A stretch of DNA of 64,000 nucleotides from the NCBI GenBank assembly GCA_937138415.1, contig CAKZPA010000034.1, positions 1-64,000 of the forward strand, in the 5' to 3' direction. Source of the DNA: an uncultured Nitrospiraceae bacterium. Its GTDB lineage: Bacteria > Nitrospirota > Thermodesulfovibrionia > Thermodesulfovibrionales > SM23-35. Below, piece by piece: positions 32,548-60,292 of this stretch (position 1 is its first letter; every line of letters starts with the position of its first letter). The position numbers were made by a program, and so were the translations under genes. Below the pieces are notes generated by a model. It saw only the letters and a list, made by a program, of their open reading frames with translations. It was not told the DNA's origin and ran no database searches.

Positions 32548-33051
32548 TTACGCCGCTTCCAGGTCGTCGGCGTGAATCGGTACGCCCACACTCTTGCCGA
32601 GGAGCGTAATGCCGACGATGAAGAGGCACACATCCTTCCTCTTCACGAGCACGCCCTCGGCACCTTCGAAGACGCCTCGTTTCACTCGGACACGGAGCCC
32701 TTCTCTCAACCCTGGATAAATGTCAAGCGGTTGCCCGCTTTCGAGCATGATTCTGAGAGACTGAATCTCTGCCGGATCGACCGGCGTCGGGATTCCGGGA
32801 TTCAGCGAGACGAATGAAACCGTTCCCCTCGTTTTTATGACACGCGCGAATTCATCCGGGTGAGGCCGCACAGAGGTGAAGACGTAGCCCGGGAAGAGCG
32901 GAAACGAAACCTCCTTCTTCCTGTCTTTCCACTGGCGCAGCTTCATCACGGACGGCAAAAACGTGTCGATCCCTTTCCGCCGCAGCTCTGCGGATACGAC
33001 GAATTCATGCCGCGGTTTCACGTAGAGGGCAAACCACTGTGCACTCGACAT
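32548..33051 (-). CDS. NusG/RfaH-like transcription antitermination factor
   Basis: 167 residues. NGN domain (AQWFALYVKPRHEFVVSAEL, FPLFPGYVF) and a C-terminal KOW domain (GLRVRVKRGVFEGAEGVLVKRK). The size and the position before a 16-kb polysaccharide operon fit a specialised NusG paralogue of the RfaH/UpxY/LoaP kind that lets RNA polymerase read through long glycan operons. Its target sequence is not evident. It sits 24 nt after the PPIase gene. Confidence 0.85.
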   Translation of the reverse strand: MSSAQWFALYVKPRHEFVVSAELRRKGIDTFLPSVMKLRQWKDRKKEVSFPLFPGYVFTSVRPHPDEFARVIKTRGTVSFVSLNPGIPTPVDPAEIQSLRIMLESGQPLDIYPGLREGLRVRVKRGVFEGAEGVLVKRKDVCLFIVGITLLGKSVGVPIHADDLEAA

Positions 33052-33075
33052 ACGACTCTCGTCACGAACGGCTCG

Positions 33076-34089
33076 CTACGGCTTTGCCGACGTGACCTCC
33101 TCGCTCAGAAGGATCCGCACATCCGCTTTCTCCCGGAGTACCTTCGCCTGCCGGTCGGCCTCTTGCTTCGCCTTTTCTTCGAAGAGGAATTGCCGTATCT
33201 TCTCTTTTACGTCTTCGTACGCCAGGATCGTCTCCGGTTTCTTCTCCACGACCTTGAAGAGGTGGAAGCCGTTGTCCGTTTCGATTATGTCCGACACCTC
33301 TCCCACCTTCAGCGCGAACACCTTGCTCTCGAACTGCTTGTCGAGCTGCCCCGGCCTGATGTACCCGAGGTCACCGCCGTTCGTCCTCGTCGGGCCATCC
33401 GAATGCTCCCGCGCGAGCGCCGCGAAGTCGCGATTCTTCTTGAGGTCGTTCAGGATCTCCTCGACCTTTTTCCGTGCGTCCCGTTTGCGGGAGGCGTCCC
33501 ACGAGGGATCCGACTGGACGAGGATGTGGCTGACCCGCACCTGGAGCGGCTGCTTGAACACGTCGAGCTGGTTCTCGTAGTACGAGACCATTTCACTGTC
33601 GGTCACGGTCACCGTCGAGGCATACTGCCGTTCGATATACTGTTGGATCGCGCTGTTCTTCTGCAGCCGTTGCCGGAGCATATCCTCGGTAATATTCCTC
33701 CGGCTCAATTCGTTCCTGTAGTCATTCTCGTTCGAGAACTGATTTCTGAGCGCCTTGATCTCTCTGTCGACCGCTTCTTCGTCGGGTTTAATCCCCGCCT
33801 TCTTGCTCTCCTGGTAGATGAGTTCCCGCCGGATCAGGCTCTCGAGAACGTCCGTGTGGACCGCTGATATCTGGTTACACGTGAGCGGCTTGCCGAAGCC
33901 GAGAAGAGCCTTCTGGATACGCAACACTTCGCCGTCGAACTCCGCCTTGTCGATCGGTGCGCCATTCACGAGCGCAACCTTGTCCGCCGTTTCCGCCTTC
34001 TTGCTCTGTCCGTACGCGGGACCGGCAACGCCCGCACATCCGATCACAGTGAGCAGGACAAGAACGTATATCTTGATCTTCCGCATCAT
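33076..34089 (-). CDS. Parvulin-type peptidylprolyl isomerase (SurA/PpiC-like)
   Basis: 337 residues. Signal peptide (VIGCAGVAGPAYG), a SurA-like N-terminal helical region (ALVNGAPIDKAEFDGEV), and a rotamase domain with QVRVSHILVQSD, GGDLGYIRPGQL and GFHLFKVVEKKP. It is a periplasmic chaperone, likely serving the porin and secreted proteins encoded in the same operon; EpsD-like proteins of exosortase loci look similar. Strong ribosome site (gggaggatgaa). Confidence 0.88.
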   Translation of the reverse strand: MMRKIKIYVLVLLTVIGCAGVAGPAYGQSKKAETADKVALVNGAPIDKAEFDGEVLRIQKALLGFGKPLTCNQISAVHTDVLESLIRRELIYQESKKAGIKPDEEAVDREIKALRNQFSNENDYRNELSRRNITEDMLRQRLQKNSAIQQYIERQYASTVTVTDSEMVSYYENQLDVFKQPLQVRVSHILVQSDPSWDASRKRDARKKVEEILNDLKKNRDFAALAREHSDGPTRTNGGDLGYIRPGQLDKQFESKVFALKVGEVSDIIETDNGFHLFKVVEKKPETILAYEDVKEKIRQFLFEEKAKQEADRQAKVLREKADVRILLSEEVTSAKP

Positions 34090-34101
34090 TTCATCCTCCC
34101 A

Positions 34102-34794
34102 TCACTTGGTGGTCACTTTCTTCTGCCTGATCTGATCCAGATACTTCTGGGCCGCCTGTTCCAGCTTGACCCTGTTTATCTGCGTGAGGGGCTCCTTCTG
34201 CAGGATGACGGATCCCAATCCCTTGCTCTTGTATTTCTCGACCAGTTCCTCGGCGATCAGGCATAAATCCGCGTTATACGATTTGCACTGCTCCAGTTCC
34301 TGCTGCTTCTTCTTCAGATCCGCGAGGACCCCCTGCTTCTCGCCCGCGACCTGTTTCATTTCCTGATCGAGAACTTTATTCCGCTGCTCCGCGTCTTGGA
34401 GATCTTTCCTGGCCTTCTCTTTCGCCTGGTCCGCTTCCCGAAGCTGCGTCTCGAACTTTTTCGCCTGCGCTGCCGCCTCCGCACACTCGCGTACCTGTAG
34501 CTCGCATGCACGGGCCTGATCTTTGAGTTTCCCGAGCTGGATCACGAGGGCATCCTTCTCATCCTCGAGTTTCGCGAGCTTTTCCGCATCCAACTGACAC
34601 TGCTGCAGAGCGGTCCGCGTCTCCTCGGCCGACGCATCGGCCTTTTTCTGGAGAAAGACGATTTTCCTGTTCGCCTCCTTCATTTTCGCTTCGAACTGTT
34701 TCTGTTCCTCAGATACTCGCAGTTGACCGATCCCGAGCCCGACGAGCAGGCCGATCGCGAGGAGGACAACACGCGGGAGCATGTTCTTCGTCAT
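34102..34794 (-). CDS. Membrane-anchored coiled-coil protein, function unknown
   Basis: 230 residues. One N-terminal membrane helix (about 8-24), then an almost continuous coiled coil (30-170) with regularly placed cysteines, then a compact C-terminal motif (LCLIAEELVEKYKSKGLGSVILQKEPLTQINRV). I recall similar small proteins beside putative porins and TonB-system genes in other bacteria, but no function. It lies between the porin and the PPIase. Confidence 0.7.
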   Translation of the reverse strand: MTKNMLPRVVLLAIGLLVGLGIGQLRVSEEQKQFEAKMKEANRKIVFLQKKADASAEETRTALQQCQLDAEKLAKLEDEKDALVIQLGKLKDQARACELQVRECAEAAAQAKKFETQLREADQAKEKARKDLQDAEQRNKVLDQEMKQVAGEKQGVLADLKKKQQELEQCKSYNADLCLIAEELVEKYKSKGLGSVILQKEPLTQINRVKLEQAAQKYLDQIRQKKVTTK

Positions 34795-34824
34795 GGGCGT
34801 TCTTCACATCCGCGAGCGGGCATC

Positions 34825-36405: not shown

Positions 36406-36440
36406 GATTTTTTGCTCACCGAAGAGATACCTGACGTTCT

Positions 36441-36495
36441 ATAGTACGGGGGCACTATTACAGCAGTATTACAGTTCCATTGCAATTCGATGAAA
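36441..36495 (-). promoter_or_regulatory. Pho-box-like promoter of the porin operon
   Basis: Minus-strand half-sites at 11-bp period: TTTCA (36491-36495), TGCAA (36480-36484), TGTAA (36469-36473), TGTAA (36458-36462). After 11 nt comes the -10 TACTAT (36441-36446). The porin start is 36 nt downstream. Confidence 0.75.
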
Positions 36496-36646
36496 AAATG
36501 ATCGGCGCTTGCGCGCGTCGCCCGCGTTTTCCCGAAGCGTGAATCGAAACCGAGGCGACCGAATACCCGGCGTGCCGGTGGAACCGCGGAAGCACGTTAT
36601 GGCCTGGTCAGAGGAGTGTCGAAATTGCCCGGAGCATATCATCGAT

Positions 36647-38230
36647 CTATTCCGAGAGGACAAAACTCTTTAGCTCGGTCCTGCTGTGCCGTTTCACCCC
36701 GTCCCAGGATTCAACGTACCAGTAAACCGTCGCGCCGGGTTCATCTCCCACGAGCCGCCGTATCGCCCTCCACTGCCCCATCGTGAGCGTCTTCGAAAAT
36801 ACCCCTTCGTTCCGGAGGGGATCTTTGATGGTAAATGTCAGCGCTTTTTTCTTCACCCCGGGAACGGTGAAATCCGGACCGTTCCCGAACCACGCCCTGA
36901 ACTTGATATTGTTCCGATTTGCCCAGGAGAGCGCCGGAGGGGGCTGGAGCGTTCTGCTCGCATGGTCGATCCGAGGTTCCCCGACGCCCTCTGCAGCCGT
37001 GACCGTAAAAGCATGAACGGCGCTCTGCACCGTGCTCCCGTCTTTGCGAATGCCGACAACACGCCACGAAACGGTTCCGCCCTCGCTCCCCGGCAGTTTC
37101 AGGATCTTCTTCCAAATCCCGGGCGAAATAGACGCTTCGGTGGCACCCCCCTTCATTCCGACCTTCACGGGAGACCTGGCGCCATTGTCCGCCCAGAACT
37201 GGAGCTCCACCTTCGCAAATGTTTCGGCAGAACTCCACGAAAACAGTATGGGTCTGTAAAGCGACGCGGCATCGACCGTCGCCCCGTCAGCGGGGGATAA
37301 GAGCAAAACGACGTCGTTCCGTGGCGAGAAGGTCGCGATCACCGACCTATCTTCGTTCATGTCGAGTGCGCAATTTCCCGTTCCGGTGCAGTCGCCCGAC
37401 CACCCCGTGAAGAGGGAACCCGCACCCGCGAGCGCGGTAAGGTACACCGCCGCCCCTTTCGGGTACTCGCGCGAACAGTTGGAACTACAGTCTATCAGCC
37501 CGTCACTGCTCGTTACCGTTCCGTTTCCCACCGTCGAGACCGCGAGCAGACAAGGCTGAGCCGGGTCGGGAGGAGCCTGTGGCTCACCGATTTCCGTCGC
37601 CCCGTCTGCGTATGTCCTGATGGCAAAGACCGGTAGGCCGTCATATGTGTTTCTTGAATTCGTAGGAGTGTCAAAGAAGTAAAGATACTGTGTGACCGAA
37701 CCTCCGGTGACGAGTGCTGCGAGGTTTGCCTCACCGGTCGGTGTCGTCAGAAACCCCATGAAGGTGCCGGCAACGCCAGAACCGAAAAGGCCTGCGAATG
37801 AAGTGGAGCTACTCTGGAGGTTGACATTCTGGGAGAAGCCCGTTTGCATATTCGCTCCCGCCAGGTCACCAATCTTACTGATGAGAGCATTGCCGCCACT
37901 CCCCTTAGCACTCTGTGCTCCCGACGTATCGCCGCTCACCCATACGAAAACGCTCCCCCCCTGGACGTACCTCATGACATAGGCGACGTACACGTCGTCC
38001 CAGCTCGTCGCGTCCAGGTCGGCCAGGGTGAAGGTCACGGGTACCCGTACCACGGGACCGCTGTAAGGGCTCGTCATGTCGAACGCACCGAGATCGGTCA
38101 CGATCTCCTTCGTTCCGCCCCTCTCGTAGACGACTCTGATCAAATGGCCTTCCTCGAAGTACGCGGCGCCCTCTCTCCCCGTGATGAGCACGAGGAGGGC
38201 GACGGCGAGAAAAAGTATCACGTTCCTCAT
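36647..38230 (-). CDS. Secreted multidomain protein sharing an N-domain with a CTERM protein
   Basis: 527 residues. Signal peptide, then a domain of about 190 residues (YFEEGHLIRVVYERGGTKEIVTD, FVWVSGDTSG, GGNALISKIGDLAGANMQTG) closely matching the CTERM protein at 56800-57558. It continues with a disulphide-bearing bacterial repeat (TVTSSDGLIDCSSNCSREYP, FTGWSGDCTGTGNC) and two Ig-like beta modules ending SFVLSE, without a sorting tail. ATG 38230 has a perfect ribosome site (aaaggagg). It is the last gene downstream of the ton genes and is probably a surface or secreted partner of this system. Confidence 0.75.
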   Translation of the reverse strand: MRNVILFLAVALLVLITGREGAAYFEEGHLIRVVYERGGTKEIVTDLGAFDMTSPYSGPVVRVPVTFTLADLDATSWDDVYVAYVMRYVQGGSVFVWVSGDTSGAQSAKGSGGNALISKIGDLAGANMQTGFSQNVNLQSSSTSFAGLFGSGVAGTFMGFLTTPTGEANLAALVTGGSVTQYLYFFDTPTNSRNTYDGLPVFAIRTYADGATEIGEPQAPPDPAQPCLLAVSTVGNGTVTSSDGLIDCSSNCSREYPKGAAVYLTALAGAGSLFTGWSGDCTGTGNCALDMNEDRSVIATFSPRNDVVLLLSPADGATVDAASLYRPILFSWSSAETFAKVELQFWADNGARSPVKVGMKGGATEASISPGIWKKILKLPGSEGGTVSWRVVGIRKDGSTVQSAVHAFTVTAAEGVGEPRIDHASRTLQPPPALSWANRNNIKFRAWFGNGPDFTVPGVKKKALTFTIKDPLRNEGVFSKTLTMGQWRAIRRLVGDEPGATVYWYVESWDGVKRHSRTELKSFVLSE

Positions 38231-38259
38231 GTGTGCAATCCTCCTTTTTCTGTCGAATT

Positions 38260-38964
38260 TCAGCTCTGATAAGTGAGCCGTATGTCCATAGTCTTTGGCA
38301 TACCGTCCGGAGGGGGGAGGCTGATTTTGAACTGATCGAGGGCTCTCCGGATCGTGTTGTCCATGGCGTGATTGCCCGAGGAACCGATGATCCTGCACTC
38401 GAGGATCACGCCGTTCTTATCCACGCTGACCCGTGCGATCGCCTGAAGCTTTCCTCTCGGTATCCCTGTCTGCTCCTCGAGGTGCCTCATCACCTGCTTT
38501 CTTACCTCAGCTTGCATGACCTGCGTGTATCCGGCGTATTTGCTGAGGAGGGAGAGTTTCTCCATGCCGCCTCCCTCTCCGGCAAGGATGCTCCTCCCGC
38601 CCTTTTTGCCGATCAGCCCGAATGCGTCGCTACCGGCGCCGCCTTCGGCATCCAACCCTAAACGGTCACCTGCCGGTGTATTGTCCTGATTGTCAGCCTG
38701 CGGTGTTGGATCGTTCCGCTCCACGGGACTGACAATCTCTTCCTTCTGCTGGATCTCCTTCGGCGGTTCGGGCGGTTTTTCCCTGACCTGCGGAGGCGGA
38801 GGCGTCTTCATCAGCGTCACGATCGCGATCGGTTTCTTTTTGCGGGCACCCTCATCGGAGAGGACCATTTTCACGAAGGACGCGATCGCACCCAGCGCCA
38901 CGACCAGCAGCGCCATCAGCGCCCACGTGAGGGCGGACATCTTTTTCACCTGCCTCGCGGACAT
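38260..38964 (-). CDS. TonB-like energy transducer
   Basis: 234 residues. One N-terminal membrane helix (about 8-30, SALTWALMALLVVALGA), a proline-rich stretch (KTPPPPQVREKPPEPPKE) and a C-terminal TonB-type domain (about 150-234: VRKQVMRHLEEQTGIP, GVILECRIIGSSG, LPPPDGMPKTMDIRLTY). It couples the inner-membrane motor to an outer-membrane partner. ATG 38964 was chosen; a GTG at 39039 overlaps the exbD stop and would add 25 residues. Gene order exbB-exbD-tonB is preserved. Confidence 0.82.
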   Translation of the reverse strand: MSARQVKKMSALTWALMALLVVALGAIASFVKMVLSDEGARKKKPIAIVTLMKTPPPPQVREKPPEPPKEIQQKEEIVSPVERNDPTPQADNQDNTPAGDRLGLDAEGGAGSDAFGLIGKKGGRSILAGEGGGMEKLSLLSKYAGYTQVMQAEVRKQVMRHLEEQTGIPRGKLQAIARVSVDKNGVILECRIIGSSGNHAMDNTIRRALDQFKISLPPPDGMPKTMDIRLTYQS

Positions 38965-39035
38965 CCTGATACCACCGCTAGAGGGGGGAAATGATTCCTC
39001 AATGGTATTTTCACCGCCTGCATGAAGACATTGGG

Positions 39036-41227: not shown

Positions 41228-41317
41228 GGATAGTCGAGCGCTCCCTTCGAACTGTGTCGTTCCGGCGCATACGGATTTTCTTTTTGAAATCGATCTGCGT
41301 ACTCTCACCGCGTTCTG

Positions 41318-51972: not shown

Positions 51973-53565
51973 TTAGAACACCGTCTGCAGTTTGAAATGG
52001 GTCCTCCAGTCGCCTCCCTTGATCCTGCCCGTCGAGGCGAGGGCTACCGCGACGGCGAGTTCGTACTCGATATTCTTGAACATCGAACCCCTCAGTCCGA
52101 ACCCCGCGCCCTGGAGCGTGACACTCCGGTCCTGCTCCGGCAGAGGCTCGTAAATCGTGAGTTTCGCGACATCGTAGAAGACGTACGGCGTGAGGTGGAG
52201 CCACGCGACGAGGCCGGATGCCTCCACCGGGTCCGGGAACGATATCTCGACGGTCAGGTGAGCGGCGTTGTCGCCGAGAGCCTCGCTCTCCTTGTAACCC
52301 CGAACGCTCTCCATTCCTCCGGCCGGGTACTGCTCGTTGTTGACGAGTGGGCCGTCCGCGATCTGCGCGGACGCCTTCACGAGCAGGCCCATATCGAGAG
52401 GCAGTTTCTGCGTGCGCTGGACGCCGAGCGTAGCGAACAGATAGTTCGCGTCCGCCTTGTACCGCTTGAGTTCGAACTCGGACTGTCTCGAGACGAGCCC
52501 GCGTATCGAAAGGTTGAGTCCGCCGTTGAACTGGGTGACGCCGCCCCACATGTCGGGGAGCGACGCGTTGTACGAGAGGCTGAAAGGGAGATACGAGACG
52601 GGCGTCCTCGTTGTCTCGCCGCCTTCCCCCGCGAAACCGACGTCTTCCCGGAAATGCTTGTAGTCGACTCCCACCGTTAAGGTGTGATTGTAGAGTCGGT
52701 GCGGCGGCAGAGGGACGACATAGCGCAGACCGAATATCTCGCCGCTCCCGACAACGGTGAACCCCTCGCCAAACGCCGTGTCGCTGTCCGTCCATATACC
52801 GTAGAGAGCCACGAGGTGGTCGTCCGACCAGGGCGATGGGAGGACGTAGGAGAGGCCGATCACCTGCACCTCCGAGAAAGCCTGCGGAGACGTCTGGTAC
52901 TGGAGCGCGATGGAATGTTCTTTCTGCCAGAGGTTGTCGTAGCGGATCATCGAGTTCAGCCTCAGCTCGGTCGTATCGTGGCTGGACCTGTTGTTCAGCT
53001 CCACGTACCCGTGGAGGGGCAACCTATCCTCGACCTTCAGTTCCACGTCGATCGTTCCCACCTCTTTCCCGGGCGAGATGACCGGCTCGACCTTGATGTC
53101 CTGGCTCCGGTTCAGGCGTCCGATCTCCTCCTGCACCTTCGGGAGGTAGAGCATGCCTCCCGGCGTGAAGGATGGCAATTTCGCCATCACCTTTTCCATC
53201 GTGAAGTAGCGGTTGCCGGTGATCTTCACATTCCCGATCCTGCTCTCGATCACTTGGAGTTTGATGATGTTGTCCGTGAGGGTCTGTTCCGGTATGTTCA
53301 CCATCACGGTGGGGTACCCCGCTTCATGGTAGAGCTTTTCGAGGGCGTCCCGCGCCTGTTCGACGTCGGTGGCCGTCTTGCCAGAACCCGTGAACGGCAT
53401 GACGACGTGCTGGAGCCTTTCCGTACTGAAGAGCGTGTTGCCCGTTATCTCGAACCCGCGGATATCGAAGCCGACGTCCGCGGAGCCGTCGCCGCCGAAA
53501 GATACCCCTACAGGGGCAGAGAGCATCAACAGGACGAGGACCGACACACAACGAATCGCCTTCAT
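51973..53565 (-). CDS. TpsB outer-membrane transporter (ShlB/FhaC family)
   Basis: 530 residues. Signal peptide, POTRA domains (about 28-180: FDIRGFEITGNTLF, VIESRIGNVKITGNRYF), then a 16-stranded barrel with YVELNNRSSHDTTELRLNSMIRYDN and AGGMESVRGYKESEALG, the VRGY loop that plugs the pore. It secretes the TpsA protein encoded downstream. Ribosome site gaggagcag lies at the end of the preceding FKBP gene, 3 nt between stop and ATG. The 179 bases down to the TpsA start are empty. Confidence 0.93.
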   Translation of the reverse strand: MKAIRCVSVLVLLMLSAPVGVSFGGDGSADVGFDIRGFEITGNTLFSTERLQHVVMPFTGSGKTATDVEQARDALEKLYHEAGYPTVMVNIPEQTLTDNIIKLQVIESRIGNVKITGNRYFTMEKVMAKLPSFTPGGMLYLPKVQEEIGRLNRSQDIKVEPVISPGKEVGTIDVELKVEDRLPLHGYVELNNRSSHDTTELRLNSMIRYDNLWQKEHSIALQYQTSPQAFSEVQVIGLSYVLPSPWSDDHLVALYGIWTDSDTAFGEGFTVVGSGEIFGLRYVVPLPPHRLYNHTLTVGVDYKHFREDVGFAGEGGETTRTPVSYLPFSLSYNASLPDMWGGVTQFNGGLNLSIRGLVSRQSEFELKRYKADANYLFATLGVQRTQKLPLDMGLLVKASAQIADGPLVNNEQYPAGGMESVRGYKESEALGDNAAHLTVEISFPDPVEASGLVAWLHLTPYVFYDVAKLTIYEPLPEQDRSVTLQGAGFGLRGSMFKNIEYELAVAVALASTGRIKGGDWRTHFKLQTVF

Positions 53566-53568
53566 GGG

Positions 53569-54465
53569 TTACTGCTCCTCCTCCGCAGGCACCTCGGTCC
53601 CTGCTTCTTCCGACTCGCTGACGGCAATGACCTGGATGTCGCAGATCAGTTCCTCGTAGCCGAAGGGGTGTCGGTAGTCGATGACGATGACCCTGTCGTC
53701 CACCTTCGTGATGCGGCCGATCTTGTTGCCCGTGCGGACGAGCGTCCCTTCTTTCGCGTCTATGTCCACCTTGTACCTGTCCGCTTCTTCGCGGACGCGG
53801 CCCGTGCCGAAAGGCGTCTCGATCGTATCCCCGCGCTTCGAGAAGGCGATGGTCACGTCCGTTTCGGTCACGGAGGTCACCCGTCCGGGGAATGCCGGAT
53901 CGTAGGAGTACTCCTGCCCAACCTCCGGTGCCTTCCGGGCGCGGAACTCGTAGTCGCCCTTCGGCATCGTCATCTCCTTCGGACGCGTCCGGACCCGCGA
54001 GAGGTACGCGAAGCCCTCCTGTTCGTTCTTCGGCATCACCATCGAGGCCGAGAGGTTCACGCGCTGCGTTTCTCCTTCCTTCATGCCGGTGACCTGGCGC
54101 GCCAGCCGGTGCTCAATTTCCAGCTCGAAGGGGCCGGGATAGAGCTGTTCCGGGTATGGATCGTCCGGAGCCACCGCACCAAGTGACACAGCGCCCGACC
54201 GCTTCCCCGGCGCGAAAACCGGAGATTTCCGCTCTGCATCCGCGACCGCGCCTGTCGATGCGACCACCTCGCCGGTTTTCAGGCGGCACAGGTAATCGAG
54301 CGTCGCGACGTCCCCCGGCTCCACCATCCGCGCGTCCCGGGTTCGAACGTCGCCGGCGGAAGGAGCCTTTTCGACAGCGCCGAGGGAAAGATTCGTCGAG
54401 ACGACGAGGATTGCCAGGAACGCGAAGAGGCCCGAGCACTTCGCTCGTGCGCGGAAACTACGCAT
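53569..54465 (-). CDS. SlyD-like FKBP peptidylprolyl isomerase, exported
   Basis: 298 residues. Signal peptide (about 1-30), then an FKBP/SlyD fold: VEPGDVATLDYLCRLKTGEVVAST, a long insert with VTGMKEGETQRVN, and the closing strands DYRHPFGYEELICDIQVIAV that match the SlyD DFNHPLAG block. A central part appears duplicated or expanded relative to the roughly 190-residue family length. It is probably a periplasmic folding helper for the TpsA-TpsB pair encoded downstream. It overlaps the DUF2292-like gene by 8 nt. Confidence 0.75.
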   Translation of the reverse strand: MRSFRARAKCSGLFAFLAILVVSTNLSLGAVEKAPSAGDVRTRDARMVEPGDVATLDYLCRLKTGEVVASTGAVADAERKSPVFAPGKRSGAVSLGAVAPDDPYPEQLYPGPFELEIEHRLARQVTGMKEGETQRVNLSASMVMPKNEQEGFAYLSRVRTRPKEMTMPKGDYEFRARKAPEVGQEYSYDPAFPGRVTSVTETDVTIAFSKRGDTIETPFGTGRVREEADRYKVDIDAKEGTLVRTGNKIGRITKVDDRVIVIDYRHPFGYEELICDIQVIAVSESEEAGTEVPAEEEQ

Positions 54466-54646
54466 TCTTTTCGAAAGCCATCCTTTCGTCTCCGTCGTCG
54501 GGGTGCACGAAAGACGGCTCTTCGATCTCCTCGAACTTCTCGACCCTCCCGATGCTCCCCTGGCTGAAGTTGATCTTGATGTACCCGCTGAACTGCCCGT
54601 CGGCGAGAGACCGGATGGTCTCGGCGAGTCTTTTCATCCTGTCCAT
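54458..54646 (-). CDS. DUF2292-like small protein, copy 1
   Basis: 62 residues; IRSLADGQFSGYIKINFSQGSIGRVEKFEEI matches the beta-rich core of DUF2292 (YezD-type) proteins, followed by an acidic tail. Cytoplasmic; function unknown. It is the first gene of the TPS operon and lies 64 nt after a Pho-box -10. A second copy is at 60095-60292, also directly behind a Pho-box-like promoter. Confidence 0.7.
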   Translation of the reverse strand: MDRMKRLAETIRSLADGQFSGYIKINFSQGSIGRVEKFEEIEEPSFVHPDDGDERMAFEKNA

Positions 54647-54709
54647 GCCCCACCCCTCGCTGTTTTTTTTGGTTTTGGAAAAAGAGTGTCGCGTGAGCGT
54701 TGCTGGGAT

Positions 54710-54764
54710 ATGTTAGAGCAGATTTATTACAGGAGTATTACACGAATGTTTCGAATGGATGAAA
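54710..54764 (-). promoter_or_regulatory. Pho-box-like promoter of the TPS/Ton operon
   Basis: Minus-strand half-sites at 11-bp period: TTTCA (54760-54764), CGAAA (54749-54753, weak), TGTAA (54738-54742), TGTAA (54727-54731), 11-nt gap, -10 TAACAT (54710-54715). Confidence 0.7.
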
Positions 54765-55018
54765 TGATGACGTCATCTCCGTGCGCGGGGAAGTGAATTC
54801 GACGGCATTGTCACTCCGATCAACTCTTTGCGATGTCTCCCCTCTGTCATGCCGGGACGCGATCCGGCATCCAAGGACGTAGCGACGGCAGTTTTTTGCG
54901 CCGTGTTGTCAGTGCGAGGTGTCCCGCATTCCGCGGGCGACGAAGCACTATCCGCCGTGGGGATGGGATTGCCGCGCTCCCTCCGGTCGATCGCAATGAC
55001 ACGATATCTCAAACGGAG

Positions 55019-55150
55019 GTCATACCGGTCCTGTCTTGTGTATGGCGTGAACTCCCGTCGGCGTCCGGTGACCCTGTCTGTCATACCGGCGAAAGCCGGT
55101 ATCCAGTGACTTTCAAAGCCTTCCTGGATTCCGGCCTGCGCCGGAATGAC
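55019..55150. repeat. 132-bp repeat unit A containing intergenic inverted repeat copy 2
   Basis: GTCATACCGGTC followed by ACTCCCGTCGGCGTCCGGTGACC and then the same palindromic element as at 1-72 (55080-55150). An equal-length, near-identical unit lies at 55240-55371. The 922-base gap (54647-55568) otherwise holds a promoter, T-rich spacers and a terminator but no gene; a 146-codon frame through it is composed of repeat sequence. Confidence 0.85.
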
Positions 55151-55239
55151 GGCCTATGAATACCAAGCTCCTGCTGGTCTTATCCATGCTCTTTTTTGTC
55201 TTGCCGTCTTTTTCTTTTGTCTTGCCGTTTTCTTTTTTC

Positions 55240-55371
55240 GTCATACCGGTCCCGTATCGTGTACGGGATGAACTCCCGTCGGTGTCCGGTGACCCTGTCT
55301 GTCATACCGGCGAAAGCCGGTATCCAGTGACTTTCAAAGCCTTCCTGGATTCCGGCCTGCGCCGGAATGAC
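55240..55371. repeat. 132-bp repeat unit B containing intergenic inverted repeat copy 3
   Basis: Second copy of the unit at 55019-55150 with scattered substitutions; its palindromic part is 55301-55371. Between the copies is a T-rich spacer with two CTTGCCGT motifs. Confidence 0.85.
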
Positions 55372-55513
55372 GGCACAATGAACTCCTGGATTCTCGTCTC
55401 AGGCGAGTCACCGAGGAGACCGGGTCACGCCCGGAATGACACCGCGGAGAGTAGCGTCTCTCCGGTCGTATACGCCGTCCAAGGAATTCTTTTAAACAGG
55501 TTTGATTTTCCCC

Positions 55514-55542
55514 CAAAAAAAAGGGCCCCCGGAGGGGCCCTT
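55514..55542 (-). terminator. Rho-independent terminator of the PstS-like gene
   Basis: Minus strand: AAGGGGCCC-type stem of 9 bp (AAGGGCCCC against GGGGCCCTT, 4-nt loop) followed by a run of eight T, 30 nt after the PstS-like stop. Confidence 0.93.
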
Positions 55543-55568
55543 AATAGTGGATACGTCAGGTCAAACGG

Positions 55569-56774
55569 CTACGGACAGGCGACTCCCGTCCACTGAAGGG
55601 GGAACGCGTCGCACGGCCTCGCCCTCTCGTAGACCATCTTGCACTTCGCGACCCAGAGGGGGTTCGCGATGTTCGCGGGGTTCTTCGCGAACGCGCAGAG
55701 CGGGCTTCCGTCCGTGATGCCGTAGAGATGCTGGAGACTGTAGAAGTTGTAGTTCCCGCCCGCGATGGCGCCGGCGCTCGCCACGACGCCGTTGAGGGCT
55801 ATTTGGGTGGTGTTCGGATACGACGTCAGGATCTGGTCGGCGTCGGCGTAGCCGATCGCGCCCGCGCCGCTCCATGAGCCTGAGCCGTTCACGCACCTCA
55901 TCATGTCGGTAGATCCGTCATTGAAGTAGTACTTGTAGGTGCTGGCCGAGTCTTGAACGGTGATCATCGGGCTCTCCAGATAGCCGTCGATCGCCGCCTG
56001 GGTGCCGGATCCGGCGTGCCTCATGCAGACGGCGATGGGCTTTGCGTCATACGACGTGCCGTCGCTGTCGACCATGTCGGACCAGTCCTGGATCTGCCCC
56101 GAGAAGATGAGTTCCGCGTTGTCCTTGGTGATGTTCGTGATGGTGTTGCCGAGCTTTGTGACGGATTTGTTCACGAAGAAGGCGAACGGCACCGCCATCG
56201 GCTTACAGGGCTCGGCGCCGGTCCAACTGATCGGGTTCGTCTTGAAGTTCCTGTCCGTCCAGCTGCCGCCGAGGGGCCCTCTCAGGTTGCCGTGGGATTC
56301 CTGCGTGAAGCACTGGACCGGCACGTCGGAGGCGCCGACCGTCACGTTCATGCACCTTGTCGCCGAGCACTGCCCGGTGGCCCAGTTGCACGTCGCCTCG
56401 TCGATCATCCTCCGCTGGAAGGGCGACGTACACTCGGTGACGCGGAAGGGGTTCGTGGTGTTGCCCTGGATGGCGAGGATGCCGTCGTAGGAGGCCTTTG
56501 CAGAGGTGCGGAAATACCTGACCGTGCCGCCGCAGGTGCCCCTGGTGATCGCGTTCCTCCCGTCCGGCGCGCCGCCGACATAGAGCTGCGCCGACGCGAT
56601 GTCCGTGCAGCCCTGTGATGCCATGAATGCGGCGGCGTTGTCCCTCCACACGATGAACTGGGCCGACGCGCCGTAGACGTTGATGTCCGAGGTGATCTGC
56701 GCCGACGACGTCCCGGCGACGGCGAAGAGGGCGAGGGCGGCGACGGCCACCATGATAATGTTCTTGAATTTCAT
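55569..56774 (-). CDS. Cysteine-rich PstS-like substrate-binding protein
   Basis: 401 residues. Signal peptide (to TSSAQ), then a type-2 periplasmic-binding fold like phosphate-binding PstS: INVYGASAQF at the N-terminus, AVPFAFFVNKSVT, NAELIFSGQIQDWSDM, CMRHAGSGTQAAIDGYL and GAGAIGYADAD. About 14 cysteines, rare for PstS, suggest a disulphide-stabilised exported protein. No pstC, pstA or pstB genes are present, so ABC import is not supported here; phosphate or another anion may be captured at the surface. Good ribosome site (aaaggagac). Downstream of a CTERM gene in one operon, with a strong terminator after it. Confidence 0.75.
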   Translation of the reverse strand: MKFKNIIMVAVAALALFAVAGTSSAQITSDINVYGASAQFIVWRDNAAAFMASQGCTDIASAQLYVGGAPDGRNAITRGTCGGTVRYFRTSAKASYDGILAIQGNTTNPFRVTECTSPFQRRMIDEATCNWATGQCSATRCMNVTVGASDVPVQCFTQESHGNLRGPLGGSWTDRNFKTNPISWTGAEPCKPMAVPFAFFVNKSVTKLGNTITNITKDNAELIFSGQIQDWSDMVDSDGTSYDAKPIAVCMRHAGSGTQAAIDGYLESPMITVQDSASTYKYYFNDGSTDMMRCVNGSGSWSGAGAIGYADADQILTSYPNTTQIALNGVVASAGAIAGGNYNFYSLQHLYGITDGSPLCAFAKNPANIANPLWVAKCKMVYERARPCDAFPLQWTGVACP

Positions 56775-56799
56775 CTCGATAGTCTCCTTTCCGTGATTG

Positions 56800-57558
56800 T
56801 TAGTGAGCGTTCTTTACCGTCCTGCGGCGGATCCCAACGAGCCCGAGGAGCCCCGCCCCGAGGAGGTACGCGGTCGCCGGTATCGGCACCGGGCTCACTA
56901 CCGCCTTGTTCGTGAACGTTTCAGCCGTCAGAACTGCCACCCCGTTGTAAGTGAGCCGCGCGTTGGTCGGCGCATTATAGTAGTAGAGGTACTGTTTCAC
57001 CGATGCGCCCGGAGTGGCGAGTGCCGCGAGGTTCGCCTCGCCGGTCGGCGTCGTGAGGAAGCCCTCGAAGGTGCCGGGCGTGCCGCGGCCGAAGAGGCTC
57101 GCGAAGGACGTGGGGCTGCTCTGGAGGTTGACGTTCCGGGCGGAGCCGGTCTGCATGTTCGCTCCGGCCAGGTCGCCGATCTTGGAGATGAGGGCGTTGC
57201 CGCCACTCCCTTTGCCGACCTGAATACCCGTCGTATCGCCGCTCACCCACACGTAGACGTTGCCTCCGACAATGTACCGCATGAAGTAGGCGACGTAGAC
57301 GTTCTCCCAGCTCGTCGCGCCGAGGTCCGCCAGATTGATGTCCGTCGGTCTCGTCACGACCGGCCAAAATCTCGGTGTTACGAGACCCCCAACGGGGTCA
57401 ATCCCCAACCTGTTGCCGAGGTCGGTCACGATCTCCTTCGTCCCGCCCCTCTCGTAGACCACCTGGATGAGGTGGCCTTCCTCGAAGTAGGCCATCGCCT
57501 GCCCGCTCATACCGAACAGGAGCAGGGCGGCCATGAGAAGCATCACGACTCTCTTCAT
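56800..57558 (-). CDS. Exosortase-sorted protein with VPIPA-CTERM tail
   Basis: 252 residues. Signal peptide, a domain of about 190 residues almost identical in layout to the N-terminus of the protein at 36647-38230 (YFEEGHLIQVVYERGGTKEIVTDLG), then the sorting signal PVPIPATAYLLGAGLLGLVGIRRR: motif, membrane helix and basic end. It is expected to be processed by the XrtD-like enzyme. Ribosome site aaaggagag. Fifteen-odd nt before the PstS-like ribosome site, so co-transcribed. Confidence 0.85.
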   Translation of the reverse strand: MKRVVMLLMAALLLFGMSGQAMAYFEEGHLIQVVYERGGTKEIVTDLGNRLGIDPVGGLVTPRFWPVVTRPTDINLADLGATSWENVYVAYFMRYIVGGNVYVWVSGDTTGIQVGKGSGGNALISKIGDLAGANMQTGSARNVNLQSSPTSFASLFGRGTPGTFEGFLTTPTGEANLAALATPGASVKQYLYYYNAPTNARLTYNGVAVLTAETFTNKAVVSPVPIPATAYLLGAGLLGLVGIRRRTVKNAH

Positions 57559-57858
57559 CTTCTTTCTCTCCTTTCATTGTTCATTAGTTTCTTTTCCCTC
57601 CCTCAGTCAGTCCGGCCGCGCGGTGCACACCCAAAAGCGCCGGATGTATGCTGAAGGCAGATTGCCGTTGCTACCGGCTTCATCCCATTGTCGCGTAACG
57701 GATACCCTGTTTCCCTATCACCCCCTTTTCCCTTCGGATTTTTTTGAGCGTTCCCGGCACTCTGCGCACAACCCTCTCTCGTCCGGAAAGCTCGCACTGC
57801 AGGTTCCCTGGTACCCGAAACGGGTCAGCCAAATCCCTGTGAAAACGCGCATCCATGG
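57559..57858 (-). other. Leader A upstream of the VPIPA-CTERM gene
   Basis: 300 bases without a supported gene or a Pho box. Its 5' part (about 57795-57850) shares GGGATTTGGCTGACCC and ACCAG-GAACCTGC with leader B (58985-59045), upstream of the other CTERM gene. The shared block could be read as HRDLADPF, but the two frames diverge afterwards. Confidence 0.5.
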
Positions 57859-58680
57859 CTACGACCCCTTCCTCCTCAGGCCGAGCAGGCCGATCAGCCC
57901 CGAACCGAGGAGCCATGCCGTCGCCGGGAGGGGGACGGCGGAAGCGGCGTCGGTGATTTCATACCGCCCGGCTATCGCTCCGCCGGAGGTGGGGATGCCG
58001 GTAATGTTTGCGACCTTCGTTTGCGTTAAGGACGCCGTGTCGATGCGGTAGAGCTCGAAGTGGTTGTTCCCCGCCCTGCGGACGCCGTAGAGGGTTCCGC
58101 CGTCGAACCCGAGCCCGACGTAACGGTTCAGCGCCGCTTGCGTGTAGCTGAGCGTCGCCATGTCGAACTTTAGGAGGGCGTTATCGTAGGAGAGATATCC
58201 CATACCGCCGCTCACCGCGAGGTCCCCCATCGCGCTCATCGCGCTCAGGAACGGGACACACGAAACCGTCTGGGTTCCCGGCGCCCCGAAGATAGTGCCG
58301 ACCGTGACGAGGTCGCCCGTGTGCCGGTCGACGAAATAGAATGTGTCGCCCGCCGCGTCGCCGTTCGCGATGTTGTACGGATCGGCCGCGGGGATCGTCG
58401 TGAGGGCCGTTCCGTTCCGGTAGAGCGTGTCGGGTCCCCGAACGTTGAAATTGGTGAAGAAATACACCCCCCCGCTCACCCCCAGCCCGTTCGGGGAATA
58501 CTGCTCCTGCCTCGATCCGCCCGGGTCCGGGAACTTCACGGCGAGGCGCGCCTCTCCGGTGGCGGTATCGAGGGTGAATACGCTCCCGTCTTCGCCCAGC
58601 AGGGAAATGAATCCGGCGTGCGCGGTGCCCGCCGGCAGGAAGAGCACCGACAAGAGGGCGAGGCAGAACATTTTCTTCAT
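57859..58680 (-). CDS. Exosortase-sorted protein with VPLPA-CTERM tail
   Basis: 273 residues. Signal peptide (to AHA), then a domain with repeating beta motifs (GEDGSVFTLDTATGEARLAVKF, FYFVDRHTGDLVTVGTIFG) resembling beta-propeller blades, and the tail AVPLPATAWLLGSGLIGLLGLRRK, the canonical VPLPA-CTERM signal. ATG 58680 was preferred to ATG 58686 because aggag lies six bases before it. Function of the exposed domain unknown. Confidence 0.87.
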   Translation of the reverse strand: MKKMFCLALLSVLFLPAGTAHAGFISLLGEDGSVFTLDTATGEARLAVKFPDPGGSRQEQYSPNGLGVSGGVYFFTNFNVRGPDTLYRNGTALTTIPAADPYNIANGDAAGDTFYFVDRHTGDLVTVGTIFGAPGTQTVSCVPFLSAMSAMGDLAVSGGMGYLSYDNALLKFDMATLSYTQAALNRYVGLGFDGGTLYGVRRAGNNHFELYRIDTASLTQTKVANITGIPTSGGAIAGRYEITDAASAVPLPATAWLLGSGLIGLLGLRRKGS

Positions 58681-58763
58681 GCGCATCTCCTTTTACGGGG
58701 GCAGGCATTTTCCCCTTTCTCCTCATTGCCTGCCACCTTTCTCACCTGATGTGTTCCCCATTC

Positions 58764-58848
58764 CCTCAGGCAACCCGTCCATCCCCTGTTTTTCCGGGAT
58801 ACGTCGGCTTTCCGTCGCCCGGTTTCCCGGGCTTTGGCTTTCTTCTGA
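58764..58848 (-). promoter_or_regulatory. GEMM-I-like (cyclic-dinucleotide) riboswitch candidate, degenerate
   Basis: Minus strand reads CAAA-GCCCGG-GAAA-CCGGGC-GACGGAAAGCC and later GGATGGACGGGTTGCC. This follows the c-di-GMP-I layout (CAAA, hairpin closed by a GAAA tetraloop, GACGCAAAGCC, GGGTTGCCGA) with the hairpin pairs preserved. Deviations: one base in GACGCAAAGCC, one in the 3' block, and the guanine that contacts the ligand appears to be a C. About 85-170 nt before the CTERM start. Confidence 0.35.
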
Positions 58849-58984
58849 AGGCCGGATGCGGGCTCGCGCCGCACCCTCCTCATCCTCTTCTATGCGTTTC
58901 CCTCCGCATCACCTCCCTCGCCCCGAAAAGTTTTCTTCGAGCCTGCCGATTCCTTCCCGCTTCGGTTTCTCCGGATGATCAGCA

Positions 58985-59045
58985 CGCCCATGGGCAGGTT
59001 CGCTGGTGCCGCGCGAATGGGTCAGCCAAATCCCTGTGTAAAGAA
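58985..59045 (-). repeat. Leader element shared by two CTERM genes (copy B)
   Basis: CACAGGGATTTGGCTGACCC, then CACCAGCGAACCTGC; copy A is at 57795-57850. Each lies 240-360 nt upstream of a CTERM start codon on the minus strand. Confidence 0.6.
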
Positions 59046-59047
59046 AT

Positions 59048-59078
59048 AGCCCGAACCGAGATCGACTCGGTTCGGGCT
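59048..59078. terminator. Strong 13-bp hairpin, bidirectional terminator or attenuator
   Basis: AGCCCGAACCGAG-ATCGA-CTCGGTTCGGGCT, perfect 13-bp stem with 5-nt loop. T-rich sequence follows on both strands (TTTCT on plus, ATTTCTTT on minus). It lies about 130 nt after the Pho-box promoter at 59210-59264 within the CTERM leader. Confidence 0.7.
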
Positions 59079-59209
59079 TTCTGGTGCCTCAGCGGCGTCC
59101 GCCGCCGGTCAGCAAAGTACCCTTACGTTCACCCGAAAAGCGCGGACATCCGTCCGCACTTTCCACATCTGTTCATCGCGTTAGAAGGGGTGTTCGTTGC
59201 TTCCCCGTT

Positions 59210-59264
59210 ACTCTACCAACTGAATGCTACATTTTTATGAAAGCAGAATTACAAATCGATGAAA
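59210..59264 (-). promoter_or_regulatory. Pho-box-like promoter before the VPLPA-CTERM leader
   Basis: Minus-strand half-sites at 11-bp period: TTTCA (59260-59264), TGTAA (59249-59253), TTTCA (59238-59242), TGTAG (59227-59231), 11-nt gap, -10 TAGAGT (59210-59215). It would give a leader of about 520 nt before ATG 58680. Confidence 0.6.
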
Positions 59265-59313
59265 TTTTTCGTGCCGAAAAAATTCTTCCAATCGACGATC
59301 GCGGATTGAGACT

Positions 59314-60051
59314 TTATCCCCGAGGCGCGCGGCCACTCTGCCGCCTCCGGTATCTGAGCGCGATCGACGCGGCGAGCCCTGAGCCGAAGAGCCACGCCGC
59401 GCCCGGAATGGGGATCGGCACAACGCCGGCCGATATCTGGACCTTGCTCCTATCCTCAGGCCGAAACCGCCCGCCGGCTTCGTTCAGTACGATCTTTCCG
59501 CTCATCTCGAAGCCGCCGCTCAAATCGTATCCCCCGAGATACCAGGTGAGCGTGCCCGAACTCGCTGGCAGTGACCGGAAACTGCCGAGAGATTCGCCGT
59601 TCAAAACGACATCTTCGAGAGCGACCGATATGCCGGCGGCCTGGGTCTCGATCATAATCTTGATCGTATTCAGGTTATTCAGCAGATCAGGGTTCGCAAA
59701 CCGTGAAGAGACACCGTCGAATGTGACGGTGCGGGATCCCGATACCGGGCTCACGACTGTCGTCGTCAGCCGGTCTTCCCCGGGAAGGTAGGTGAAGAAA
59801 AAGGTGTTCGCACTCTCGCCATAGCTCCACTGTTTTACGTGCCCGGCGGAACGGTCTCTTCCCCTGAGAAGATCGCCGTAACCGAGCCATATCTCCTTCT
59901 GTCCCGAAGGGTTGCCGAAGGAGTGGTAACGAACAGAGAAATACTCCGGGTTCATGGTGTCCTGCGGTCCCTCGTTTGCGAGAGAGGCCAGTGCGGTGTC
60001 AGCAGACAACGCCATAAGTGCGATCGCGATGGCCATCGATATCTTTTTCAT
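59314..60051 (-). CDS. Exosortase-sorted protein with IPIPG-type CTERM tail
   Basis: 245 residues. Signal peptide (to ALA), then a beta-sandwich-like domain (EIWLGYGDLLRG, FFFTYLPGEDRLTTTV, LTWYLGGYDLSGG) and the tail VPIPIPGAAWLFGSGLAASIALRYRRR, a variant of the VPLPA sorting signal with a helix and an Arg-rich end. Ribosome site ggagagatcgggggg. Downstream of the DUF2292-like copy 2 and probably under its Pho-box promoter. Confidence 0.83.
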   Translation of the reverse strand: MKKISMAIAIALMALSADTALASLANEGPQDTMNPEYFSVRYHSFGNPSGQKEIWLGYGDLLRGRDRSAGHVKQWSYGESANTFFFTYLPGEDRLTTTVVSPVSGSRTVTFDGVSSRFANPDLLNNLNTIKIMIETQAAGISVALEDVVLNGESLGSFRSLPASSGTLTWYLGGYDLSGGFEMSGKIVLNEAGGRFRPEDRSKVQISAGVVPIPIPGAAWLFGSGLAASIALRYRRRQSGRAPRG

Positions 60052-60094
60052 CGTCCCCCCGATCTCTCCTTTGAGTAGGCGTAGCGAGATGCGC

Positions 60095-60292
60095 CTACTT
60101 CTTCAGAATCTCCTCGAATTTCTCGATCTTCCCGATCTCCCCGTGCCGGAAGTTGATCTTGATGAACCCGGTGAATTTCCTGCCGGACAGCTCCTTGATC
60201 ATCCGAATCGCCGATGCCGATTTCTCAACGATCCGCCGTTCGGCTTTCCTGCCGGATGTGTATGCCTTTTCTTCTCTCTTTTGCTCGCGCAT
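60095..60292 (-). CDS. DUF2292-like small protein, copy 2
   Basis: 65 residues: IRMIKELSGRKFTGFIKINFRHGEIGKIEKFEEI closely parallels the copy at 54458-54646. Basic N-terminus. ATG 60292 lacks an evident ribosome site, and an earlier TTG is unsupported. First gene behind the promoter at 60346-60400, followed by a CTERM gene. Confidence 0.68.
   Translation of the reverse strand: MREQKREEKAYTSGRKAERRIVEKSASAIRMIKELSGRKFTGFIKINFRHGEIGKIEKFEEILKK

What the first reader, a model, noticed from the sequence alone, without database searches (positions are those of the whole stretch)
32548..60292. Candidate phosphate-starvation surface system: TPS exoprotein, private Ton motor, porin and PstS-like protein
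One co-oriented block encodes a SlyD-like FKBP, TpsB, a 3491-residue TpsA, an ExbB fusion, ExbD, TonB, a putative porin, a coiled-coil protein, a PPIase, a Cys-rich PstS-like protein and CTERM surface proteins, under Pho-box-like promoters. TPS secretion does not normally need a Ton motor. A dedicated exbB-exbD-tonB set directly behind tpsA suggests energised work at the outer membrane: release or movement of the giant protein, or gating of the porin. The PstS-like protein without pstCAB could capture phosphate outside the cell. The functional model is inference.
Basis: partly seen in the sequence, partly recalled or inferred. Interest (0 to 1): 0.8.

Follow-up and report, generated by a model that had tools for sequence, protein, structure and literature searches.

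The report
Phosphate-starvation giant exoprotein with private motor
This gene block encodes a giant secreted surface protein, its exporter, a dedicated proton-driven outer-membrane motor, a porin and a phosphate-binding-type protein, predicted to be switched on by phosphate shortage; the same kit recurs in distant bacteria, including Pseudomonas aeruginosa, and nobody knows what its motor drives.

Summary
The block is real and its parts are named almost correctly. It is not a chance neighbourhood. The core (TpsB, giant DUF3739 TpsA, ExbB fused to DUF2341/lectin-like domains, ExbD, TonB, Porin_5, coiled-coil protein, PpiC-type PPIase) recurs, complete or nearly so, in about a dozen loci from several phyla. 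The full twelve-gene order, with the PstS-like, FKBP-like and CTERM genes, recurs in a second family of the same phylum (G111). Phosphate control is well supported in silico: a motif trained on this genome's pst, phoB and PHP-gene promoters ranks the block's own promoters top in the window, and a strict form occurs 7 times in the 2.1-Mb genome, 4 of them here. By order and description the locus matches P. aeruginosa PA0690-PA0699 (pdtA/pdtB, exbB2-exbD2-tonB4, porin PA0696 to PpiC PA0699), where PhoB dependence is shown by experiment and PstS/DING-like proteins lie alongside. So this is a new variant of a known, functionally unsolved locus. The private Ton motor is genuine: a third motor in the genome, apart from the one near a TonB-dependent receptor. 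What it energises is open. My best model: a phosphate-scavenging outer-membrane system whose motor acts on its own exoprotein, exporter or porin.

The parts
60414..61127 (-). PhoB-type response regulator (OmpR family)
   Evidence: TIGR02154 PhoB 273 bits, E 1e-81, just under its cut-off of 296; its own promoter has a Pho box
61304..61331 (-). Pho box array upstream of phoB (TTTAATCTCTCTGTCATGATCCTGTAAC)
   Evidence: one of three training sites of the motif
60362..60400 (-). Pho box array upstream of the 60095-60292 small ORF and the CTERM-type gene at 59314
   Evidence: genome-wide pattern hit; held-out PWM 27.9 bits against a best shuffle score of 16.3
60095..60292 (-). 65-aa ORF, paralogue of the 62-aa ORF (FTGFIKINFRHGEIGKIEKFEE)
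   Evidence: translation; coordinates worked out from that frame
59314..60051 (-). choice-of-anchor-W-like surface protein with C-terminal sorting-like tail
   Evidence: NF041928 25 bits, below its cut-off of 45
59226..59264 (-). Pho box array upstream of the CTERM gene at 57859
   Evidence: PWM 21.1 bits
58765..58847 (-). c-di-GMP-I riboswitch-like aptamer upstream of the CTERM gene at 57859
   Evidence: Rfam RF03167 48.4 bits, E 1.4e-8, below the gathering score of 59
57859..58686 (-). PEP/VPLPA-CTERM surface protein
   Evidence: PF07589 20.4 bits (cut-off 20.7), TIGR03370 24.4 bits (cut-off 25.35)
56800..57558 (-). VPLPA-CTERM surface protein (CT1)
   Evidence: TIGR03370 26.6 bits, over its cut-off; conserved beside the PstS-like gene in G035 and G111
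55569..56774 (-). PstS/DING-like substrate-binding protein with 14 Cys
   Evidence: PF12849 E 1.6e-10; ptsS_2 E 4e-12; RxxxSGT anion-ligand motif invariant in 8 relatives; family profile finds DING and PstS structures
54726..54764 (-). Pho box array upstream of the FKBP-tps operon
   Evidence: 20.1 bits
54458..54646 (-). 62-aa conserved small ORF, overlaps the FKBP start by 8 bases
   Evidence: same position and near-identical core in G035 and G111
53569..54465 (-). FKBP/SlyD-like secreted protein (divergent)
   Evidence: weak FKBP hits; 42-43% identical in G111 and G035
51973..53565 (-). TpsB (ShlB/FhaC family, POTRA + barrel)
   Evidence: PF03865, PF08479
41318..51799 (-). TpsA, 3493 aa: N-terminal TPS domain, C-terminal DUF3739
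   Evidence: PF05860 E 1.6e-21, PF12545 E 7.5e-28; the only TPS domain found in the genome
39446..41308 (-). ExbB/TolQ-type motor subunit with N-terminal, probably periplasmic, DUF2341 + LamG-like (ConA) domains
   Evidence: PF10102, PF13385, PF01618
39036..39449 (-). ExbD, keeps the channel Asp (NVIPMLD)
   Evidence: PF02472 E 1e-27; motif
38260..38964 (-). TonB-like energy transducer (start corrected from 39039 to the Met at 38964)
   Evidence: PF13103 E 2e-12; no SxxxH motif in the first 110 residues in any of 14 module TonBs
36647..38230 (-). CT1 paralogue with InlB-type repeat, found between tonB and the porin gene in this genome only
   Evidence: absent at this place in G111
36457..36495 (-). 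Pho box array upstream of the porin gene
   Evidence: 20.5 and 18.3 bits
34825..36405 (-). Porin_5 'putative porin' with N-terminal helical segment and no plug domain
   Evidence: PF16930 E 3e-123; alignment
34102..34794 (-). coiled-coil envelope protein (PA0697-like by position)
   Evidence: conserved C-terminal block in 9 plasmid loci and present in G111
33076..34089 (-). SurA/PpiC-type peptidyl-prolyl isomerase
   Evidence: PF00639 E 8e-28
32548..33051 (-). UpxY/RfaH-type antiterminator, last gene of the conserved block
   Evidence: NF033644 110 bits, over its cut-off; same place in G111

Best explanation
The block is a PhoB-controlled outer-membrane system of the Pdt/PUMA3 type. Steps supported by sequence evidence: under phosphate limitation PhoB acts at Pho-box arrays in front of the small-ORF/FKBP/tps operon, the porin operon and the CTERM genes; TpsB exports a 3493-residue TpsA; folding helpers (FKBP-like, SurA/PpiC-like) are made with it; a separate ExbB-ExbD-TonB motor and a porin without plug come from the same block. 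Inferred steps: the PstS/DING-like protein is released and binds phosphate outside the cell; the porin admits phosphate or small phosphorylated compounds; the motor, whose ExbB carries a lectin-like domain towards the periplasm, works on the block's own outer-membrane parts, most likely the conserved C-terminal DUF3739 end of TpsA or its TpsB/porin partner, to place, retain or release the giant protein at the surface. The purpose is scavenging of scarce phosphate at or beyond the cell surface.
For: Gene content. Conserved core in plasmid loci from Alpha-, Beta- and Gammaproteobacteria (split in Methylomagnum), in Syntrophorhabdus (short contig) and in G035 and G111. In 72,556 plasmid records, 11 carry the fusion and 15 the TpsA C-terminus; 10 are the same records, and the 11th (Aquabacterium) has a diverged TpsA beside the fusion. 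Pho boxes: a matrix trained on the pst, phoB and PHP promoters ranks block promoters top; genome-wide strict pattern 7 hits against 1 in the control, 4 in this block and 1 before pstS. A separate motor lies near a TonB-dependent receptor. PstS/DING-like genes lie next to the system in window, G035, G111, Methylomagnum, Methylosinus and two Burkholderia; in P. fluorescens SBW25 a secreted DING protein lies next to a 4083-aa haemagglutinin-type gene (PMC2225411). P. aeruginosa PA0690-PA0699 is PhoB-dependent with PhoB-DNA binding shown (PMC4971064).
Against: No experiment in this organism. P. aeruginosa tpsA, tpsB, tonB4 and PA0696 mutants showed no loss of sigma-VreI-induced virulence in zebrafish (PMC2729926), and no phosphate-uptake defect of these genes is on record in the papers I read. 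PdtA is described as a virulence factor in nematodes, not as a phosphate protein. TPS export can run without added energy (PMC5422565). Phosphate binding by the PstS-like protein rests on remote homology and a motif. Orthology with the P. aeruginosa genes rests on order and product descriptions, because PAO1 sequences were not in reach.
Confidence: 0.5

Rival explanations
1. A phosphate-regulated adhesin/biofilm system: TpsA is an adhesin that fixes the starved cell to surfaces or neighbours, and the Ton motor controls its retention or shedding; phosphate uptake as such is not its job.
For: TPS proteins of the filamentous haemagglutinin type are commonly adhesins (PMC5422565). The window lies beside an EPS/XrtD exosortase cluster and VPLPA-CTERM surface proteins, with a c-di-GMP riboswitch-like element. 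phdA in the P. aeruginosa locus affects biofilm (PMC7035377).
Against: Recurrent linkage to PstS/DING-like genes and, in single cases, phosphatases or type II secretion genes points to phosphorus acquisition; the CTERM genes were seen beside the module only in the window's lineage and once in Aquabacterium.
Confidence: 0.27
2. The Ton set energises the porin as an active nutrient channel, so that phosphate or phosphorylated compounds are pumped in; TpsA is a capture device outside.
For: tonB and the porin gene are neighbours in nearly all loci; the porin has its own Pho box array in the window; HxuABC is a precedent for a TPS capture protein working with a TonB-dependent transporter (PMC5422565, PMC4873976).
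Against: The porin has no plug domain, only a short N-terminal helical segment before the barrel, and no TonB box was recognised. Porin_5 is not known to me as TonB-dependent. The structure prediction failed.
Confidence: 0.15
3. A cluster of independent Pho-regulon genes without functional coupling, held together by co-regulation and joint transfer.
For: In some replicons parts are dispersed (Methylomagnum keeps tps, motor and porin in separate operons), and tpsA occurs in extra copies or on replicons without the motor.
Against: Order tpsB-(tpsA)-exbB-exbD-tonB-porin-coiled coil in most loci across phyla, and 10 of 11 fusion-bearing plasmid records detected with the same TpsA family.
Confidence: 0.08

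Closest known systems
Pseudomonas aeruginosa PUMA3/sigma-VreI locus PA0690-PA0699 (pdtA, phdA, pdtB, exbB2, exbD2, tonB4, PA0696 putative porin, PA0697, PA0698, PpiC-type PA0699)
   Same: Same set and order of tpsB, exbB, exbD, tonB, porin, unknown protein and PpiC-type PPIase with a giant TpsA; PhoB-dependent; DING/LapA-type PstS-like proteins alongside (PMC2729926, PMC4971064, PMC7035377, PMC2225411).
   Different: No vreAIR (ECF sigma, anti-sigma), no Hxc type II secretion genes, no YbjN protein or LysR regulator in the block; instead a PhoB-type gene at its head, direct Pho boxes, an FKBP-like gene, a 62-aa ORF, CTERM surface proteins and an UpxY antiterminator. Sequence identity to the PAO1 proteins was not measured.
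Same module on Klebsiella, Burkholderia, Cupriavidus, Variovorax, Aquabacterium, Methylosinus and Methylomagnum replicons
   Same: Full-length ExbB fusion (33-38% identical), ExbD, TonB in most, Porin_5, coiled-coil protein and PPIase in most, TpsB, DUF3739-type TpsA.
   Different: Several carry vreAIR-like genes and YbjN; the place of tpsA varies.
DING / LapA / Psp extracellular phosphate-binding proteins
   Same: PstS fold family; lie next to the giant TPS gene in P. fluorescens SBW25 and P. aeruginosa; induced by low phosphate (PMC2225411).
   Different: The window protein has 14 cysteines, only remote sequence similarity and no DINGGG N-terminus; no type II secretion genes beside it.
HxuCBA haem system of Haemophilus influenzae
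   Same: A TpsA working together with TonB-energised outer-membrane import (PMC4873976, PMC5422565).
   Different: There the partner is a TonB-dependent receptor in a three-gene operon without a motor; here a motor and a plugless porin.

Membership tests
Pdt/PUMA3-type TPS-Ton locus | tpsB + giant DUF3739-type tpsA + DUF2341-ExbB fusion + exbD + tonB + Porin_5 + coiled-coil protein + PPIase clustered | tested here: met
Pdt/PUMA3-type TPS-Ton locus | PhoB control through Pho boxes at tps/motor promoters | tested here: met
   sequence prediction only; experimental in P. aeruginosa (PMC4971064)
Pdt/PUMA3-type TPS-Ton locus | ECF sigma/anti-sigma/VreA signalling genes | tested here: not met
   none seen in the block; present in L034-L036, L039, L050, L052, L053; so the signalling arm of the P. 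aeruginosa type is absent here
Pdt/PUMA3-type TPS-Ton locus | direct sequence orthology to PA0690-PA0699 | not testable with these tools
   no PAO1 chromosome could be reached in the collections; order and descriptions taken from papers
Two-partner secretion (type Vb) | TpsA with TPS domain and TpsB with POTRA + barrel | tested here: met
   PF05860, PF03865, PF08479; NQNGI motif in translation
Ton system (TonB-ExbB-ExbD) | ExbB/TolQ core, ExbD channel Asp, TonB C-terminal domain | tested here: met
   PF01618, PF02472, PF13103; Asp conserved
Ton system (TonB-ExbB-ExbD) | TonB transmembrane SxxxH motif | tested here: not met
   absent from the first 110 residues of all 14 module TonBs, present in another TonB-like protein of this genome; the motif as a feature of TonB is from general knowledge
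Ton system (TonB-ExbB-ExbD) | plug-bearing TonB-dependent receptor as partner in the locus | tested here: not met
   none in the block; the four in the genome are on C33 and C36, and one motor lies about 6 kb from the C36 receptor
DING/PstS phosphate-binding proteins | PBP family similarity with Arg...Ser-Gly-Thr phosphate ligands | tested here: met
   PF12849 over cut-off; motif invariant; profile to DING structures E 3e-30, though the Burkholderia DING members drive that score
DING/PstS phosphate-binding proteins | phosphate binding | not testable with these tools
   needs binding assay
FKBP/SlyD | FKBP domain score over curated cut-off | tested here: not met
   no Pfam hit; NCBIfam 18 bits against a cut-off of 125; PDB profile E 0.03

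The most novel reading that the evidence does not exclude
A type V (two-partner) secretion system whose giant exoprotein is exported, moved or released with proton-motive force from its own ExbBD-TonB motor, through the conserved DUF3739 C-terminus and the lectin-like domain on ExbB; that would be an energised type Vb system, dedicated to phosphate scavenging.
Probability: 0.22. Interest if true: 0.88.

Novelty: new variant of a known kind. Interest (0 to 1): 0.6.

Why it matters
Type V secretion is taught as needing no energy source, yet a giant two-partner exoprotein here travels with its own proton motor across several phyla. In P. aeruginosa the corresponding proteins are among the strongest phosphate-starvation responses, and the exbB2-exbD2-tonB4 set was still called uncharacterised in 2020 (PMC9769906, PMC7035377). 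The conserved core, the module-wide TonB and TpsA C-terminal conservation, and a version without the VreI signalling arm give a defined parts list, so that the open question (what does this motor drive?) can be tested in a tractable Pseudomonas.

Tried and rejected
A genome-contig scan with the ExbB fusion found only a Syntrophorhabdus contig. A general Pho-box model, partly from E. coli sites recalled from memory, gave suggestive but not significant hits in the plasmid loci (Methylomagnum PhoX, porin and PstS, Burkholderia tpsB). In G111 the best Pho-box score only just exceeds shuffles (17.4 against 16.9). Weak partial DUF3739 hits in 13 genomes of the phylum belong to shorter proteins and were not pursued. 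The search for porin relatives of solved structure gave nothing firm. Chance clustering is rejected. The idea that the motor is the cell's only Ton system is rejected. Literature searches found no paper that describes a DUF2341-ExbB fusion together with TPS as a system.
Full report
OBSERVATION. On the minus strand, from 61127 down to 32548, lie a PhoB-type regulator, three sorting-signal-type surface proteins, a PstS-like protein, a divergent FKBP-like protein, TpsB, a 3493-aa TpsA with a TPS domain and a C-terminal DUF3739, an ExbB fused to DUF2341 and LamG-like domains, ExbD, TonB, a surface-protein paralogue, a Porin_5 porin, a coiled-coil protein, a SurA/PpiC-type PPIase and an UpxY-type antiterminator. 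The FKBP label is weak. The TPS domain and Porin_5 were found once each in the genome.

CO-OCCURRENCE. A tblastn search of 72,556 plasmid records with the ExbB fusion gave 11 records with a full-length match. Their surroundings carry TpsB, ExbD, Porin_5 and mostly TonB, the coiled-coil protein and the PPIase, with a DUF3739-type giant protein on the replicon. One replicon, Methylomagnum, has the parts in separate operons. Independent searches with the Klebsiella TpsA C-terminus and the Klebsiella ExbB periplasmic part hit 15 and 11 records; 10 are shared, and the eleventh, Aquabacterium, has a diverged TpsA directly before the fusion. In the window's own phylum only three of 296 genomes have the full-length TpsA type, and all three have the module. 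G111, of another family, has the complete twelve-gene order from CTERM protein to antiterminator. G035, same order, has CTERM-PstS-FKBP-TpsB-TpsA-ExbB-ExbD-TonB but no porin directly behind. None of the 19 other same-family genomes searched has the fusion. In a tree of the ExbB fusions the window, G035 and G111 form one clade with Syntrophorhabdus as neighbour, apart from the proteobacterial copies.

PHOSPHATE CONTROL. Nine loose Pho-box matches occur in the window against 3.5 expected, and five of them lie between genes in front of block genes. The strict pattern TGTAATN5TGTAAT with one mismatch occurs 7 times in 2.1 Mb (1 in the reversed control): four are in this block, two of them overlapping, and one stands before the pstS gene of the pst operon on another contig. 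A matrix trained only on the pst, phoB and PHP-gene promoters was then applied to the window. After phoB itself, a training site, its best scores fall on the promoters of the CTERM genes, the porin and the FKBP-tps operon (17 to 28 bits; best of five shuffles 16.3). In G035 the two best hits also precede these genes; in G111 the signal is marginal. This is sequence evidence, not expression data.

PRIVATE MOTOR. The genome has three ExbD-type motors: this one; one at C39 with a TolA/TonB_2-type protein beside it, probably Tol; and one at C36 about 6 kb from a TonB-dependent receptor. G035 and G111 likewise have a separate motor close to a receptor. The module's ExbD keeps the channel aspartate. 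None of 14 module TonBs has the SxxxH motif in its first 110 residues, whereas another TonB-like protein of this genome does. All module TonBs share a glycine-rich stretch of the type LDAxGGAGSDAFGLxGxxGG before the C-terminal domain (by eye).

OUTER-MEMBRANE PARTS. The porin family has a short N-terminal helical segment, then the barrel, and no plug. The TpsA C-terminus is the best conserved part of TpsA in this phylum (71% identity around residues 3200-3400 against 25-55% elsewhere) and is recognisable in the proteobacterial relatives although lengths run from 3.4 to 4.6 thousand residues. That end is therefore the natural candidate for contact with shared parts of the system. This is inference.

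PHOSPHORUS CONTEXT. PstS/DING-like genes lie near the system in the window, G035, G111, Methylomagnum, Methylosinus and two Burkholderia replicons; the Burkholderia member tested is a clear DING protein. Methylomagnum also has PhoX and another phosphatase nearby. The window protein keeps the Arg-x-x-x-Ser-Gly-Thr motif shared by all eight relatives. In P. fluorescens SBW25 a low-phosphate-induced, secreted DING protein is encoded next to a 4083-aa haemagglutinin-type gene, and its authors proposed extracellular phosphate scavenging (PMC2225411).

KNOWN COUNTERPART. P. aeruginosa PA0690-PA0699 encodes pdtA, phdA, pdtB, exbB2, exbD2, tonB4, a putative porin, two unknown proteins and a PpiC-type PPIase (PMC7035377). 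Its promoters need PhoB and sigma-VreI, with PhoB binding shown (PMC4971064), and PdtA, PA0696 and PA0698 are among the proteins most raised at low phosphate (PMC9769906). PUMA3-like clusters with TPS, ExbBD and PA0696 were already noted in other Proteobacteria (PMC2729926). The exbB2-exbD2-tonB4 set was called uncharacterised in 2020. A 2025 survey mentions DUF2341 appendages on ExbB-type subunits as of unknown function (PMC12505986). So the window is a new variant of a known kind: predicted PhoB control without the VreI arm, tied to a VPLPA-CTERM/XrtD surface system. I could not align the PAO1 proteins directly.

MECHANISM. Shown by sequence: parts, order, conservation, predicted PhoB control, private motor. 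Inferred: extracellular phosphate capture by the PstS-like protein; porin-mediated entry; motor action on TpsA, TpsB or porin. Reconstituted type V export needs no added energy (PMC5422565), so a direct role of the motor in export itself is a minority reading, and placement or release of the giant protein is more likely. Classical TonB gating of the porin is disfavoured by the missing plug.

Noticed in passing
window 58765-58847 (-): c-di-GMP-I-GGC riboswitch-like aptamer (48.4 bits, E 1.4e-8, below gathering score) in the leader of the CTERM gene at 57859; a similar stretch is visible by eye in G035 L041 before its CTERM gene. It would couple surface protein output to c-di-GMP as well as phosphate.
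   Followed up: partly
window 17808-19379 (-): VPLPA-CTERM-type exosortase XrtD (387.5 bits, cut-off 400) inside the EPS cluster, matching the VPLPA-CTERM proteins of the block.
   Followed up: partly
window 54458-54646 (-) and 60095-60292 (-): Two paralogous small ORFs (62 and 65 aa) with the core F(S/T)G(Y/F)IKINF..G.IG(R/K)(V/I)EKFEE, each directly behind a Pho box; the first is conserved at the same place in G035 and G111. No Pfam hit for the two stretches tested; YezD/DUF2292-like by eye only.
   Followed up: partly
window about 54950-55400: Two near-identical copies of a repeat rich in CCGTCATTCCGGCG...CGCCGGTATGAC inverted arms between the PstS-like gene and the Pho box; probably a dispersed genomic repeat.
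   Followed up: no
window 36647-38230 (-): CT1 paralogue (67% identity over 200 aa) with an InlB-type repeat instead of the CTERM tail, inserted between tonB and the porin gene in this genome only.
   Followed up: partly
G035:C97:24631-27859: A second copy of the ExbB fusion, ExbD and TonB in G035 (ExbB 55-59% identical to the other copies) without a tps gene in front; the contig ends behind TonB.
   Followed up: no
G000:C10:21706 (L064): Strong Pho box array in front of a PHP-domain-like gene, probably another Pho-regulon member; a sensor kinase, PhoR-like by eye, lies upstream.
   Followed up: no
L033/L048 (Methylomagnum plasmid): tps genes near PhoX, another alkaline phosphatase and a 'Cys-every-fifth' RiPP cluster with radical-SAM maturases.
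   Followed up: no
L036 (Klebsiella quasipneumoniae plasmid): The module with vreAIR-like genes sits on a plasmid typed as conjugative (IncFIB) with an arsenic operon nearby, so it may travel between enterobacteria.
   Followed up: no
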